64,000 nucleotides of DNA from Promethearchaeia archaeon. GTDB lineage: Archaea > Asgardarchaeota > Lokiarchaeia > Sigyniarchaeales > SOKP01. Numbering within the stretch: the first letter of the stretch is position 1; every line of letters begins with the position of its first letter. A model generated the notes under the pieces. The model had not been told where the DNA came from. It saw only the letters and a list, made by a program, of their open reading frames with translations, and did not search any database. The position numbers were made by a program, and so were the translations under genes. Shown piece after piece: positions 8,327 to 14,868 of the stretch. The DNA lies in the NCBI GenBank assembly GCA_029856155.1, contig JAHQWL010000040.1:1-64000 (forward strand). Reading direction: 5' to 3'.

Positions 8327-8438
8327 AGAATAATTAGTTTTTTCATCTTATTTTAACATTATTATTATACATTTTAATCTAGAAGCCAGACCCCAATGAA
8401 CATGCTCAATTTCAAACTTAAATCATAATGACTTATTT

Positions 8439-8483: not shown

Positions 8484-10388
8484 ATGGAAAACGAAAGAAT
8501 CTCTTATCATAAATCTGTTCAAAAGGTTTATGAAAGAATTAAAAAAGATGGGATGACTAATATTTGGGATCGCTTTGAAGCCCAGGGGTTTGGAGGGGAT
8601 CCTGATAAACGATGTCCATTTTGCTTAAAAGGTGCGCGTTGTGACTTATGTTCTAATGGGCCTTGTAGAGCCGATTCATCAATAGACAAACGGGGCGTAT
8701 GCGGAATGACTGCGGACGGTATGGCAATGCGCATGATGCTTCTTAGGAATGTTATGGGCGCATCAACGTATCATTATCATACTGAAACAACTTTGAAAAC
8801 CTTAAAGGCTACGGTAGAAGGTAAAACTCCATTTAAAATTTCTGAACCCGAGAAATTAAAAAGTTTTGCTGAGCGTCTTGGTTTAGATACATCCGGTTCT
8901 GAAAAAGATATTGCAATTAGATTATATTATTTTGTGAAGGAGGACTTTATTATACCTTATGATGAACAAAGCAAAATTGTTGAGAAATTAGCACCTCCCG
9001 AAAGACAAGAAGTATGGAAAAAATTAGGAATCTTTCCAGGGGGAATTTATGGTGAAATGATGTTCTCAACAAGCTCTTGCCTTACAAATGTAGATGGATA
9101 TTATGCAAGTTTAGCTCTAAAAGCAATGAGACTTGGGATTGCCATGGCCTACCAAAGCCAAATTGTTAATGAATTTACTCAAGATATTTTATTTAATATT
9201 CCCAGACCACATAAAATGAGAGTTAATCTAGGAGTATTAGATCCAGATTACGTAAATATCCTTCCAAATGGGCATGAACCATTTCTAGGATTTGCAATGG
9301 TCCAGCTTGCACGAAAATCTGAATGGCAAGAAAAAGCGAAAGCAATCGGTGCAAAAGGAATAAGAATTATAGCAAATATTGAGACCGGACAAGAAATGAT
9401 ACAAAGATGGGAAATGGATGATGTATTTTATGGATTTACAGGAAATTGGATTATGCAAGAAGCAATCTTGGCAAGTGGCTGCATTGATGCCTTTATCTGT
9501 GATATGAATTGTTGTATGCCAATTGACCCTATATATGCTAAAAAATATAAATTCAAGTTAGTTCCGGTTTCCGAAGTTGTGGTTTTTGAAGGCATAACTG
9601 AACGAGTAGATTATAAACCTGAAAAAGCTGAAGCGCAAGCAGCAACATTAATTCAAATGGCAATTGATAATTTCAAGGAACGTAGAGCAAGTGTGGAACC
9701 TATTACAGGTTTAGATATGAGTGAAGCGGTAGTTGGATTTTCAAGTGAAAGTATTCTTTCTGCTCTTGGAGGGACATTGGAACCTTTACTAGATGTAATT
9801 AAAGACGGTACAATACGAGGAGTTGCCGGATTAATATCTTGTACTACACTTAGAGATTACGGCCAAGATGTGCATACAATTCAAGTGGCTAAAGAATTAA
9901 TTAAAAGAAATGTTTTAGTATTATCAATGGGATGTGGCAATGGTGGCCTACAAGTTGGAGGATTATGTGTACCAGAAGCGAAAGAAATGGCTGGTCCTGG
10001 CTTAAAAGCGGTTTGTGAAAAACTAGGAATTCCTCCAGTTCTTAGTTATGGAACATGTACAGATACAGGTAGAGTTGCCGATTTGATAGGAACTATCTCT
10101 GCCGCACTCGGTGGTGTACCAATTTCAGATTTACCAGTAGTAGCAGCAGCTCCAGAATATATGGAGCAGAAAGCCACAATTGATGCAATATTCGCGTTAG
10201 CATTTGGTCTATATACATATGTTAATCCAGTACCTACAGTCACTGGAGGTGCCGATTTAGTTAAACTCTTAACCGAAGATTGTAAAGATTTAACAGGTGG
10301 AATATTGCATATTGAAACTGATCCAATTCAAGCTGTCGATGCAATGTTAGCCCATATTGAGAAGAATAGGGAAAAATTAGGTATATAA
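8484..10388 (+). CDS. cooS: CooS-type carbon monoxide dehydrogenase homologue with a C-cluster Cys replaced by Glu
   Basis: Length (634 aa) and the N-terminal cysteines for the B and D clusters (CPFCLKGARCDLCSNGPCR and GVCG, about residues 50-80) match CooS enzymes. The C-cluster ligands can be aligned to the well-studied CooS-II: His264 (GHEP), Cys343, Cys453, Cys484, Cys525, and the catalytic Lys563. The position of Cys295, normally in an ICCT-type motif, is instead Glu300 in ANIETGQE. A CooS-V enzyme of Carboxydothermus lacking one canonical cysteine is known to hold an Fe/S/O hybrid cluster, to be inactive with CO and to react with hydroxylamine. The present protein may therefore be a hybrid-cluster redox enzyme, not a CO dehydrogenase. 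No ACS subunits or hydrogenase lie nearby. Confidence 0.88.
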   Translation: MENERISYHKSVQKVYERIKKDGMTNIWDRFEAQGFGGDPDKRCPFCLKGARCDLCSNGPCRADSSIDKRGVCGMTADGMAMRMMLLRNVMGASTYHYHTETTLKTLKATVEGKTPFKISEPEKLKSFAERLGLDTSGSEKDIAIRLYYFVKEDFIIPYDEQSKIVEKLAPPERQEVWKKLGIFPGGIYGEMMFSTSSCLTNVDGYYASLALKAMRLGIAMAYQSQIVNEFTQDILFNIPRPHKMRVNLGVLDPDYVNILPNGHEPFLGFAMVQLARKSEWQEKAKAIGAKGIRIIANIETGQEMIQRWEMDDVFYGFTGNWIMQEAILASGCIDAFICDMNCCMPIDPIYAKKYKFKLVPVSEVVVFEGITERVDYKPEKAEAQAATLIQMAIDNFKERRASVEPITGLDMSEAVVGFSSESILSALGGTLEPLLDVIKDGTIRGVAGLISCTTLRDYGQDVHTIQVAKELIKRNVLVLSMGCGNGGLQVGGLCVPEAKEMAGPGLKAVCEKLGIPPVLSYGTCTDTGRVADLIGTISAALGGVPISDLPVVAAAPEYMEQKATIDAIFALAFGLYTYVNPVPTVTGGADLVKLLTEDCKDLTGGILHIETDPIQAVDAMLAHIEKNREKLGI

Positions 10389-10589: not shown

Positions 10590-10798
10590 TTCGACTTCCT
10601 CCATTTAATTTATTTATATTCATTTATTAGGTTTAAATTTTTAATTTTATAAGTTATTAGGATGTATTTATTTAAAAACTACTAGCAACTCGAAAAATAT
10701 GATGCTGGTATGTAATCATAAACTATAATATATTCATCGGGAAAAAAAAAGAACATGTTCGAAATTAAAATCATATTCTAATCTCCCATCTTTTAATT

Positions 10799-11584
10799 AT
10801 GACAGTTTCAGAAAAAAATAATTTGACAAAAAGAAAAATCATCAAAATCGATGAAGATCTTTGCACAGGATGCGGAAATTGTGTGGTAGATTGTGCAGAG
10901 GGAGCTTTGAAGGTAATCGATGGAAAAGCTAGGGTTATAAATGAAGTTTTCTGCGATGGTCTTGGTGCGTGCATTTCTGGTTGTCCTGAGGGAGCACTTG
11001 AAATAATTGAAAGAGAAGCTTTAGAGTTCGATGAAGAAGCTGTTGAAAAATATTTAGAATCTATGAAACATAATGAACAAGCTGAAACAGCACAAATAAA
11101 AGAAATTGTTACTGAGCACGTCCACCAATGTGGTTGCCCTTCTGCTCGAACCATGGTTTTTGAGGAACCAAAAACGCAAACAGAAGTATCTGGAAAGATA
11201 CCTTCAGCACTACGACAGTGGCCTGTTCAAATGCATTTAATCAATCCTCGAGCACCTTATTACCAAGGAGCAGATGTACTTTTTTCGGCAGATTGTGTAG
11301 GATTTTCATATGGAGATTTCCATAGAGACTTTCTAAAGCAGAAATCGATAGCAATTGCTTGTCCAAAACTCGATCAAGGTAAAGAAGTTTACATAGAAAA
11401 AATTAAATCTTTAATTGATGACGCAAAAATAAACACACTTACAGTTGCTAGTATGGAAGTGCCTTGCTGTTCTGGTTTATTAGCTTTGGCTCAAGAAGGA
11501 GTTAAACGAGCAAGTAGAAAAGTTCCAATAAAATTTGTTGTCGTGGGCATACAAGGAAATATTTTAAAAGAAGAATGGGTATAA
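10799..11584 (+). CDS. Ferredoxin-domain protein associated with the CooS-like enzyme
   Basis: Residues 15-70 form a dicluster ferredoxin domain. The first knuckle, CTGCGNCVVDC, is complete; the second, CDGLGACISGCPEG, lacks one of the four usual cysteines. A middle motif, HQCGCPSAR, precedes a C-terminal domain with conserved-looking Cys residues (FSADCVG, IACPKLD, VPCCSG). This architecture is the ferredoxin-like family often found beside hybrid-cluster proteins in anaerobes. Here it follows the atypical CooS, with a small opposite-strand gene between. It is the likely electron partner, supporting a hybrid-cluster role for that enzyme. The pairing is inferred from gene order. Confidence 0.8.
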   Translation: MTVSEKNNLTKRKIIKIDEDLCTGCGNCVVDCAEGALKVIDGKARVINEVFCDGLGACISGCPEGALEIIEREALEFDEEAVEKYLESMKHNEQAETAQIKEIVTEHVHQCGCPSARTMVFEEPKTQTEVSGKIPSALRQWPVQMHLINPRAPYYQGADVLFSADCVGFSYGDFHRDFLKQKSIAIACPKLDQGKEVYIEKIKSLIDDAKINTLTVASMEVPCCSGLLALAQEGVKRASRKVPIKFVVVGIQGNILKEEWV

Positions 11585-11604: not shown

Positions 11605-12261
11605 TTATTGTTTCTCAAATAAGACTTTCTTTTTAATAATTTTTCTAAGCATTACGGATAAAGCTGATTTAGATTTGCCCAATTCGTTAGCTAATTCTTC
11701 TAAGGAAATCTTTCTTGGAATTTCAAAAAATCCGGAAGAAATTGCCTTATCAAGTATATTAGATTCATCATAGGTTAATTTATTTTTATCATCTTCAATA
11801 ATGTATGGAGATAATCCAATTCTTAATAATTCAAAATTAATATTTTTTTCTTCAAAAAGTGTTAATAATTGATCTATTCGTTCTCTACTCGATATCAACC
11901 TCCAATAAGCAAATCCATCCTCAACTCTTACTGGGAAGTCAATAAGGACTCCGCATTTTATTATCGCATATAATAAATAAGGATCTTCTGTTTTCACGTT
12001 AAATTTAACTTTGTTTTCTTCTTTCTCTAATACACTTAACTCGAAAACAGAAGGATGATTCCTAATTTCTACTATAATAGAATCAATATCGTAATGTAAA
12101 ATCTCAATTAGACTATTTCCAATGGACTTCTCAAGATCATAAGGCAGAAAATAGGAAATTTCCATTTTTATATCAGGAAAGTTCTTAAAAATTTCAGAAA
12201 TCCATATCTGATCTGGAAACCTAATCTTAATTCTTGCTAAACTCGACCTACTTGTATCCAT
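11605..12261 (-). CDS. Bat/HTH_10-type transcription regulator
   Basis: The C-terminal 55 residues carry the HTH_10 helix-turn-helix known from the haloarchaeal bacterio-opsin activator family: LTYDESNILDKAISSGFFEI followed by ISLEELANELGKSKSALS. The first 150 residues are a ligand- or protein-sensing region without heme or Cys motifs, typical of short archaeal Bat-like regulators. It converges on the ferredoxin-like gene and is divergent from the flavoprotein gene 86 bases away. It may regulate either, but no operator could be identified. Confidence 0.75.
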   Translation of the reverse strand: MDTSRSSLARIKIRFPDQIWISEIFKNFPDIKMEISYFLPYDLEKSIGNSLIEILHYDIDSIIVEIRNHPSVFELSVLEKEENKVKFNVKTEDPYLLYAIIKCGVLIDFPVRVEDGFAYWRLISSRERIDQLLTLFEEKNINFELLRIGLSPYIIEDDKNKLTYDESNILDKAISSGFFEIPRKISLEELANELGKSKSALSVMLRKIIKKKVLFEKQ

Positions 12262-12347: not shown

Positions 12348-12944
12348 ATGGTCGAAAAGAAGAATCTACTTTTAGGGATATGTGGAAGTCCAAGAAAGCA
12401 AGGAACAGAATATGCTGTCGAGTATGCCTTAAACTATGCTGCTGAAAAATTTGGATTTGACACAGAGTTTTGGAGTGTTAGAAATAAAAAAATTAATTTC
12501 TGCATTCATTGCGATTATTGTATTCGAGAGAAAAAAGGATGTGTCAATAAGGATGATATGGAAGATCTTTATTCTAAATTGGAAGAAGCTAAATTTCTTC
12601 TCTTTGGTACTCCAGTATTTCAAGGCAATTTATCAGGTCAACTAAAAACGGTAATGGATCGGTGTCGTGCTATGGTTGCTAAGAATCCTAATGTGTTTAA
12701 AGATAAAATTGGAGCGGCATTGGCTGTAGGGGGAGATAGAAGCGGAGGACAAGAGATTGCTATAAGAAGTATTTTAGATTTTTACCAACAAAATCATATT
12801 TTACCAGTATCTGGTGGCGCTTTTGGAGCGAATATAGGTGCTAGTTTGTGGAGTAGAGATATGGGAAAAGAAGGAATCGAAAATGATGAAGAAGGGTTGA
12901 GAACCATCCGAAAAGTAATAAAAAGATTAGTAGATTTTTTATAA
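12348..12944 (+). CDS. Iron-sulfur flavoprotein / NADPH-dependent FMN reductase family
   Basis: A flavodoxin-like fold begins with GICGSPRKQGTEYAVEYAL, the FMN phosphate loop. The motif CIHCDYCIREKKGC near residue 53 is the compact cysteine cluster of archaeal iron-sulfur flavoproteins that bind a [4Fe-4S] cluster beside FMN. FGTPVFQGNLSGQLKTVMDR is typical of the family, as is the GGDRSGGQE loop. Relatives move electrons between ferredoxin and FMN-dependent acceptors, and some reduce oxygen or peroxide. It fits the neighbouring redox-stress genes. Confidence 0.85.
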   Translation: MVEKKNLLLGICGSPRKQGTEYAVEYALNYAAEKFGFDTEFWSVRNKKINFCIHCDYCIREKKGCVNKDDMEDLYSKLEEAKFLLFGTPVFQGNLSGQLKTVMDRCRAMVAKNPNVFKDKIGAALAVGGDRSGGQEIAIRSILDFYQQNHILPVSGGAFGANIGASLWSRDMGKEGIENDEEGLRTIRKVIKRLVDFL

Positions 12945-13540: not shown

Positions 13541-13846
13541 TTATTTAACTCCAAATAATTTCTTTGCTTCTTTTTCTCTTAATCCAGAAATCCCCCAAAG
13601 CTCCTTAAACCAATATTTTCCTTTATGAATAACAACCGGGGTGTTCACTATACAACCATCAGCATCACAGAACGTTTTTGAAAAATTGTCATCATGTAAT
13701 AGCTCGTGTACAAATTCCTCATCATTTATATCTCGTTCAATATATCTAACTTCGTGTTTATTGAGCCATTCCTTTAACTCTTTACATCTGTGGCAGCCTT
13801 CCTTGGTTATCACTATTGCTGTCTTAGATTCTGCCAAAATAATCAT
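13541..13846 (-). CDS. Glutaredoxin-like protein (CHRC active site)
   Basis: A compact thioredoxin-fold protein with the redox motif KEGCHRCKELKEWLNK near residue 17. A second Cys pair follows in FCDADGCIVNTPVV, where the cis-proline loop (TPVV) is expected. At 101 residues it is the size of a glutaredoxin. It converges on other dithiol genes in this island and is a paralogue-like companion of the protein at 14557. The electron source could be the ferredoxin:thioredoxin reductase encoded nearby. Confidence 0.75.
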   Translation of the reverse strand: MIILAESKTAIVITKEGCHRCKELKEWLNKHEVRYIERDINDEEFVHELLHDDNFSKTFCDADGCIVNTPVVIHKGKYWFKELWGISGLREKEAKKLFGVK

Positions 13847-14556: not shown

Positions 14557-14868
14557 ATGGCTGAAATTATAGAAAACATAGCGCAAACTGTTGAGGGATC
14601 CAAAAAAAGCAGAGATATCACAATTTTAACATTATCTACTTGTATGTGGTGTAAAAAATGTAAGGCTTGGTTAAATGAGCGCGATATACAATTTAGATAC
14701 GTAGATGTAGATAAAATTAATTTTGAAGAAAAATCAAAAATTATGGATTATTTAAGGGGAAAATACCAATCTAGAATTTCATATCCATTTATGATCTGTG
14801 ATGATGAAGTTGTAGTAGGATATAATCCAAATAAATACGAAGAATTATTGAAAACTGGAGGAGCTTAA
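14557..14868 (+). CDS. Glutaredoxin/thioredoxin-like protein, probable FTR partner
   Basis: The active site is TLSTCMWCKKCKAWLNERD near residue 29, a CxxC followed by a third Cys, with the expected Pro of the cis-Pro loop at SYPFMI. The gene ends one base before the FTR catalytic subunit begins, indicating one operon and probably a dedicated thioredoxin for that reductase. Length (103 aa) fits a glutaredoxin-like thioredoxin. The start at ATG 14557 is preceded by GAGGAAG. Confidence 0.82.
   Translation: MAEIIENIAQTVEGSKKSRDITILTLSTCMWCKKCKAWLNERDIQFRYVDVDKINFEEKSKIMDYLRGKYQSRISYPFMICDDEVVVGYNPNKYEELLKTGGA

What the first reader, a model, noticed from the sequence alone, without database searches (positions are those of the whole stretch)
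8484..10388. CooS homologue with the Cys295-equivalent replaced by Glu: possible hybrid-cluster enzyme, not CO dehydrogenase
Five other C-cluster ligands and the catalytic Lys563 line up with CooS-II, but the position normally Cys (ICCT) reads IET, giving Glu300. A Carboxydothermus CooS-V enzyme that lacks one canonical Cys holds an Fe/S/O hybrid cluster, is inactive with CO and reacts with hydroxylamine. The adjacent ferredoxin-domain protein is of the type usually found beside hybrid-cluster proteins. A Loki-type archaeon may thus use this for nitrogen-oxide or redox stress, and CO metabolism should not be inferred from the gene alone.
Basis: partly seen in the sequence, partly recalled or inferred. 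Interest (0 to 1): 0.72.

Follow-up and report, generated by a model that had tools for sequence, protein, structure and literature searches.

The report
CODH-like hybrid-cluster enzyme in Lokiarchaea
This Lokiarchaeal gene, which automatic annotation would call carbon monoxide dehydrogenase, belongs to the already known CooS-V-type enzymes whose metal site is built for a different cluster and does not use CO; new here is that it shares a control site and an electron-carrier protein (FrdX) with a small redox-stress gene set, much as hybrid-cluster proteins do in other microbes.

Summary
Observation confirmed. The 634-aa CooS at 8484-10388 has Glu300 where CO-oxidising CODHs have Cys295. It is not a new variant: its closest solved relative, Carboxydothermus CooS-V (51% identity), has the same exchange, carries an Fe/S/O hybrid cluster and is inactive with CO. 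So: new member of a known kind. New context: (i) the adjacent ferredoxin is FrdX, the full-length family that flanks HCP elsewhere, and it adjoins D-1 CooS in several distant phyla; (ii) a palindrome, GAACATGTTC, precedes cooS, frdX and the NADH:rubredoxin oxidoreductase across Lokiarchaea, even where cooS lies elsewhere; (iii) HCP is nearly absent from Asgard archaea. A redox or nitrogen-oxide role like HCP's is likely but the substrate is unproven: CooS-V reduces hydroxylamine very slowly and showed no NO reduction. The genome also encodes CdhA. Side finding: two Lokiarchaeal cooS orthologs carry a 32-nt insert resembling a bulge-helix-bulge pre-mRNA intron.

The parts
8484..10388 (+). cooS of structural group D-1 (CooS-V type), 634 aa
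   Evidence: TIGR01702 731 bits, Prismane 466 bits; best PDB sequence 7b7q CooS-V 679 bits vs 402 for the next CODH; AF2 model TM 0.94-0.95 to CooS-V
9381..9383 (+). codon of Glu300 (Cys295 of CODH-II; Glu295 of CooS-V)
10164..10166 (+). codon of Glu561 (Glu556 of CooS-V, a hybrid-cluster ligand), two residues before Lys563 (10170-10172)
   Evidence: PMC9311411
8398..8407 (.). palindromic site GAACATGCTC (1 mismatch to GAACATGTTC) in the shared divergent cooS/NROR promoter
10751..10760 (.). exact palindrome GAACATGTTC 38 nt before the frdX start codon
10799..11584 (+). frdX: two 4Fe-4S motifs plus C-terminal Cys-containing domain, 261 aa; probable electron carrier
   Evidence: Fer4 domains; same full-length family beside HCP, 289-318 bits
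6974..8326 (-). NADH:rubredoxin oxidoreductase-like flavoprotein with fused C-terminal rubredoxin (NROR), divergent from cooS
   Evidence: Pyr_redox_2, Rubredoxin_C and Rubredoxin domains
11605..12261 (-). HTH_10 transcription regulator, candidate (untested) regulator of the cluster
   Evidence: PF04967; conserved in the cluster
12348..12944 (+). NADPH-dependent FMN reductase family protein
   Evidence: PF03358; conserved cluster member
13541..13846 (-). glutaredoxin-like protein
   Evidence: PF00462; conserved cluster member
14557..14868 (+). glutaredoxin-like protein
   Evidence: PF00462
14870..15235 (+). ferredoxin-thioredoxin reductase catalytic-chain homologue
   Evidence: PF02943

Best explanation
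The gene encodes a group D-1 (CooS-V-type) homodimeric enzyme with a CODH fold. In place of the Ni-Fe C-cluster it most likely holds an Fe/S/O hybrid cluster on His264, Glu300, Cys343, Cys453, Cys484, Cys525 and Glu561. It works as a reductase, not as a CO dehydrogenase. Electrons from NADH (through the flavin/rubredoxin protein) or from low-potential ferredoxin pass through FrdX to the bridging [2Fe-2S] cluster (Cys44/47), then to the [4Fe-4S] cluster (Cys53/56/61/73), then to the hybrid cluster, which reduces a small oxidised nitrogen or oxygen species. Expression is coordinated with frdX and NROR through a GAACATGTTC operator. Shown here: family membership, residue signature, FrdX family identity, gene neighbourhood and shared palindrome. 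Inferred: cluster type in this protein (from the CooS-V structure), electron route, substrate, regulator.
For: Sequence and fold closest to CooS-V. Complete D-1 signature, invariant over intact orthologs. Glu type is one clade, SH-aLRT 100. Two Lokiarchaeal paralogs that keep Cys, His and Ser at these sites serve as an internal contrast. FrdX is a same-strand neighbour in 31 of 96 non-redundant loci, upstream or downstream of cooS, in Lokiarchaea, WOR-3, Methanofastidiosa, Methanomassiliicoccales, Methanophagales, Freyarchaeota and Dehalococcoidia. The same family adjoins HCP. frdX knockdown makes C. difficile sensitive to NO (PMC12915319). The palindrome lies upstream of cooS, frdX and NROR but of 0/29 FMNred, 0/25 Grx1, 0/20 Grx2 genes, background about 2.5% per 250 nt. 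Rrf2 regulator next to cooS in WOR-3, and superoxide reductase between cooS and frdX in L040.
Against: No biochemistry on this protein. CooS-V reduces hydroxylamine poorly (kcat/KM 20 per M per s, below even R. rubrum CODH) and NO reduction was not detected (PMC9311411), so the true substrate is unknown and could be neither. frdX is also found in many Asgard genomes without cooS, so it is not a dedicated partner. No NrfA-type nitrite reductase in the genome, so no obvious internal source of hydroxylamine. Most D-1 loci outside the Lokiarchaea lack frdX nearby.
Confidence: 0.8

Rival explanations
1. It is a CO dehydrogenase with a tolerated ligand change: Glu300 replaces Cys as a ligand of a Ni-Fe C-cluster and the enzyme still converts CO.
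For: CODH fold, Lys563 and five of six C-cluster ligands kept; NCBIfam calls it a CODH catalytic subunit. Genetics in M. acetivorans was once read as hinting at CO use by a D-1 enzyme (PMC6344411).
Against: CooS-V with the same residues has no Ni and no CO activity, and the C295E variant of CODH-II is Ni-deficient and unable to oxidise CO (PMC9311411). The acid-base His is Tyr here. The genes between 6974 and 15235 that were scanned are redox proteins and a regulator, with no CooC, hydrogenase or ACS gene among them.
Confidence: 0.05
2. It is a redox sensor or electron buffer: the morphing cluster reports cellular redox state and slow turnover is the point, not catalysis.
For: Redox-dependent cluster rearrangement and channel gating in CooS-V, very low turnover (PMC9311411); a genomic study proposed redox-sensing or regulatory roles for clade D (PMC13056359).
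Against: A ferredoxin and an NADH-linked reductase that share its palindrome suggest sustained electron supply.
Confidence: 0.15
3. It handles oxygen species or peroxide rather than nitrogen oxides, as part of an oxidative-stress set with rubredoxin, superoxide reductase and flavodiiron protein. (This differs from the best explanation only in the substrate.)
For: Fused rubredoxin in NROR; superoxide reductase within the cluster in L040; superoxide reductase and a flavodiiron-type protein about 4.4 kb apart in this genome; glutaredoxins and FTR-like protein nearby.
Against: FrdX links to HCP and NO defence, and the C. difficile hcpR mutant is sensitive to reactive nitrogen but not reactive oxygen species (PMC12915319).
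Confidence: 0.25

Closest known systems
CooS-V of Carboxydothermus hydrogenoformans (PDB 7b7q; PMC9311411)
   Same: 51% identity over the whole length, same Cys-to-Glu exchange, Glu556/Glu561, type III bridging-cluster cysteines, TM 0.94-0.95
   Different: CooS-V is a divergent member; the window protein belongs to a large, tight group (74-80% identity across archaea and bacteria). The CooS-V paper reports no informative gene context; here there is frdX and a shared palindrome.
Structural group D-1 of Ni-CODHs (PMC6344411)
   Same: All listed residues: His, Glu, Cys x4, Tyr, Lys, type III D-cluster, Glu two before Lys
   Different: The published context for D-1 was a COG1063 dehydrogenase with HypA/HypB; these were not among the families found around the window gene.
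Hybrid cluster protein with FrdX (HcpR regulon; PMC545781, PMC1274295, PMC12915319)
   Same: Active-site residues alike (PMC6344411); FrdX neighbour of the same full-length family
   Different: By sequence a CODH: the HCP model gives 21 bits against a cut-off of 361. The palindrome GAACATGTTC differs from the published HcpR consensus sites.
Canonical CooS CODHs (6t7j, 6elq, 6b6v) and Lokiarchaeal canonical CooS (L061, L062, L148)
   Same: Fold, Lys563, five C-cluster ligands
   Different: They have Cys at 300, His at 96, and Ser, Thr or His at 561

Membership tests
CooS-V / structural group D-1 | Glu in place of the first C-cluster Cys (Cys295) | tested here: met
   Glu300
CooS-V / structural group D-1 | Glu two residues before the Lys (Glu556 of CooS-V) | tested here: met
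   Glu561-Gln-Lys563
CooS-V / structural group D-1 | Tyr in place of the acid-base His, Lys kept | tested here: met
   Tyr96, Lys563
CooS-V / structural group D-1 | Type III D-cluster C-X2-C-X5-C | tested here: met
   Cys44-X2-Cys47-X5-Cys53
CooS-V / structural group D-1 | Groups with CooS-V in phylogeny | tested here: met
   One Glu clade, SH-aLRT 100, against 13 Cys rows; Cys-type clade D members (D-2 to D-4) were not sampled
CooS-V / structural group D-1 | Holds Fe/S/O hybrid cluster without Ni; no CO activity | not testable with these tools
   Needs purified protein
Canonical Ni-Fe CO dehydrogenase | Complete C-cluster ligand set incl. Cys295 | tested here: not met
   Glu300
Canonical Ni-Fe CO dehydrogenase | Acid-base His93 | tested here: not met
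   Tyr96
Hybrid cluster protein (HCP) | Score over the TIGR01703 cut-off | tested here: not met
   21.4 bits vs 360.8
FrdX (neighbouring gene) | Full-length homology to the ferredoxin beside hcp | tested here: met
   L158, L159, L160, L165: 289-318 bits over nearly the whole profile
Bulge-helix-bulge pre-mRNA intron (side finding in L057, L058) | Cuts between 2nd and 3rd base of both 3-nt bulges restore the reading frame | tested here: met
   AU^A with CA^A or UA^A gives GAA UAU AUG GAG; excision restores the frame through to the end of the gene in both
Bulge-helix-bulge pre-mRNA intron (side finding in L057, L058) | Central 4-bp helix between the bulges | tested here: inconclusive
   By eye on the folds: GAAU/GUUC pairs in L057; GAAU/GCUU in L058 has one mismatch and two wobbles; neither is in the predicted minimum-energy fold

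The most novel reading that the evidence does not exclude
D-1 CooS is a stand-in for hybrid cluster protein that arose separately from the CODH scaffold: in Asgard archaea and other anaerobes that lack HCP it took over HCP's electron donor FrdX, and in Lokiarchaea it is under a dedicated operator (GAACATGTTC) shared with FrdX and an NADH:rubredoxin oxidoreductase.
Probability: 0.45. Interest if true: 0.7.

Novelty: new member of a known kind. Interest (0 to 1): 0.5.

Why it matters
Genes of this type are labelled CODH in databases, and a naive reading would assign CO metabolism to many Asgard archaea and other anaerobes. The physiological role of CooS-V-type enzymes is an open question: a published genomic survey found no clear gene context for clade D (PMC13056359). 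The FrdX link, the near absence of HCP in Asgard archaea and the shared palindrome make that question directly testable: does FrdX reduce the enzyme, and do the three genes respond together to nitrosative or oxidative stress?

Tried and rejected
Error or chance substitution at Glu300: rejected, the residue is invariant in the clade. FrdX fold: AF2 model weak (mean pLDDT 65) and no PDB match at E <= 0.001, so the C-terminal domain remains unidentified. Palindrome as a large regulon: not supported in this genome, only 6 exact copies against 7 for the reversed control, 4 of them inside reading frames; its support is cross-genome conservation. frdX as strictly CooS-bound: rejected, the NROR-frdX-HTH10-FMNred-glutaredoxin cluster persists in Lokiarchaea without cooS. 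Broken copies in G186 (internal deletion) and G006 (remnant) were looked at as further intron cases and set aside. A named locus was not accepted as a search centre; HCP was then searched in 42 of the genomes by handle.

Full report
Observation. The ORF at 8484-10388 (+) encodes 634 aa and scores as the CODH catalytic subunit (TIGR01702, 731 bits). Residue 300 is Glu at the position of CODH-II Cys295. The remaining C-cluster ligands (His264, Cys343, Cys453, Cys484, Cys525) and Lys563 are present.

What it is. The best solved relative is CooS-V of C. hydrogenoformans (679 bits, 51% identity; the next CODH scores 402 bits). CooS-V already has Glu at this position. Its structure shows an Fe/S/O hybrid cluster and no Ni; it has no CO activity, slow hydroxylamine reduction (kcat 0.13 per s) and no detectable NO reduction (PMC9311411). 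Inoue et al. defined this type in 2019 as structural group D-1 (PMC6344411). Every D-1 residue feature is met: Glu for the first Cys, Tyr96 for the acid-base His, Glu561 two before Lys563, and a C-X2-C-X5-C D-cluster. The AF2 model (pLDDT 84) matches CooS-V best (TM 0.94-0.95, E 6e-66; next, a Thermococcus CODH, TM 0.91).

Spread. Among 114 aligned distinct CooS rows, 97 carry the identical 16-residue signature; the rows that differ are canonical CODHs or truncated or split copies. In the tree the Glu rows form one side of a fully supported branch. Cys-type clade D sequences were not in the set, so the age of the exchange is not resolved, and the quick tree warns of long branches. Orthologs at 74-80% identity occur in Chloroflexota, WOR-3, Desulfobacterota, Actinomycetota, Methanolobus, Methanomassiliicoccales and others. 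The nearest is a Lokiarchaeota MAG (96%). Of 228 Asgard genomes about 46 hold a full-length, split or contig-cut D-1 gene (my count). The window's genome also has a CdhA and no HCP. Two Lokiarchaeal genomes carry both the D-1 gene and a canonical CooS (L061, L062), and a third has only the canonical type (L148).

Partner. The gene at 10799-11584 has two 4Fe-4S motifs and a C-terminal domain with conserved Cys residues. A profile of 31 such neighbours of cooS matches, over nearly its full length, the proteins directly beside HCP in L158, L159, L160 and L165 (289-318 bits). This corresponds to FrdX as named by Rodionov et al. (PMC545781, PMC1274295); I match it by its position beside hcp and by domain, not by comparison with their sequences. 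In C. difficile frdX and hcp are induced by NO, and knockdown of either gives NO sensitivity (PMC12915319). FrdX lies on the same strand within 6 kb of D-1 cooS in 31 of 96 non-redundant loci, upstream in some lineages and downstream in others, which suggests more than one assembly event. Of 42 named genomes searched for HCP, the 13 with frdX beside cooS have none over the cut-off, while the 9 with HCP have no frdX beside cooS. By hand this is p about 0.02, one-sided, not corrected for relatedness or MAG gaps. HCP is over the cut-off in 1 of 196 Asgard genomes. FrdX is present in 33 of my 46 D-1 genomes and in 60 of the other 182 (counted; confounded by relatedness). So FrdX also works without CooS.

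Control site. Alignment of the cooS upstream region in ten Lokiarchaeal loci showed a conserved GAACATGTTC palindrome. With at most one mismatch within 250 nt it occurs upstream of cooS, frdX (mostly 39 nt before the ATG) and NROR, in 27/48, 24/36 and 22/34 genes of the Lokiarchaeal/Asgard set; these counts include duplicate loci. Counting distinct loci by hand gives 21 cooS, 19 frdX and 17 NROR genes. It precedes none of the FMNred, Grx1, Grx2, HEAT or FTR genes; the background is about 2.5% per 250 nt. It is kept where cooS lies away from the cluster (for example L046, L052, L054, L070, L102). One palindrome in a shared divergent promoter serves cooS and NROR together, so these two are not independent counts in linked loci. 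In the window the sites are 8398-8407 and 10751-10760. The regulator is unknown.

Mechanism. Shown: family, residues, partner family, shared palindrome. Inferred: electrons from NADH or ferredoxin via NROR and FrdX to the bridging [2Fe-2S], the [4Fe-4S] and the hybrid cluster, and reduction of a small nitrogen or oxygen species. Superoxide reductase and flavodiiron-type genes exist in the genome and NrfA was not found, so an oxidative role competes with a nitrosative one.

Side finding. In G017 and G030 cooS is interrupted by 32 nt at the same point, between Tyr559 and Met560, three codons before Lys563. The inserts share 16 of 32 bases but fold alike: an 8-bp hairpin with a 9-nt loop inside a 7x7 internal loop closed by exon pairing (z -4.4 and -3.1), with three pairs changed on both sides. 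Cutting as in archaeal bulge-helix-bulge introns (PMC2738675) restores the frame. dN/dS of the joined genes is 0.04-0.08, and both genomes encode tRNA-intron endonuclease homologues. The central helix is imperfect in G017, and the two genes are not sisters in the tree. The window's own cooS has no insert.

Verdict.

Noticed in passing
L058 (G017) and L057 (G030), cooS orthologs, between codons 559 and 560: 32-nt insert at the identical site in two Lokiarchaeal genera, different sequence but same fold with paired changes; removal restores the frame. Looks like a bulge-helix-bulge pre-mRNA intron next to the active-site Glu-Gln-Lys motif.
   Followed up: partly
L224, site 1501 (G000 contig C9:8318): The only other exact GAACATGTTC of this genome that lies outside reading frames of 90 aa or more is 129 nt upstream of a 277-aa protein of unidentified family.
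   Followed up: no
L061, L062, L148: Three Lokiarchaeal genomes carry a canonical CooS (Cys295, His93 kept); in L061 and L062 a 202-aa protein and an NADH-oxidase-like flavoprotein lie directly beside it.
   Followed up: partly
L199 (G186) and L060 (G006): Decayed cooS: a large internal deletion ending at residue 563 in G186, and a C-terminal remnant with a stop in G006.
   Followed up: partly
L204 (G121): frdX divergent from a gene that by eye looks like a Crp/FNR-family regulator, with a cupin gene on the other side; compare HcpR beside hcp-frdX in bacteria. The regulator was not scanned against a family library.
   Followed up: no
G000 contig C64:23273-28516: Superoxide reductase domain and a flavodiiron-type protein about 4.4 kb apart in the window's genome.
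   Followed up: no
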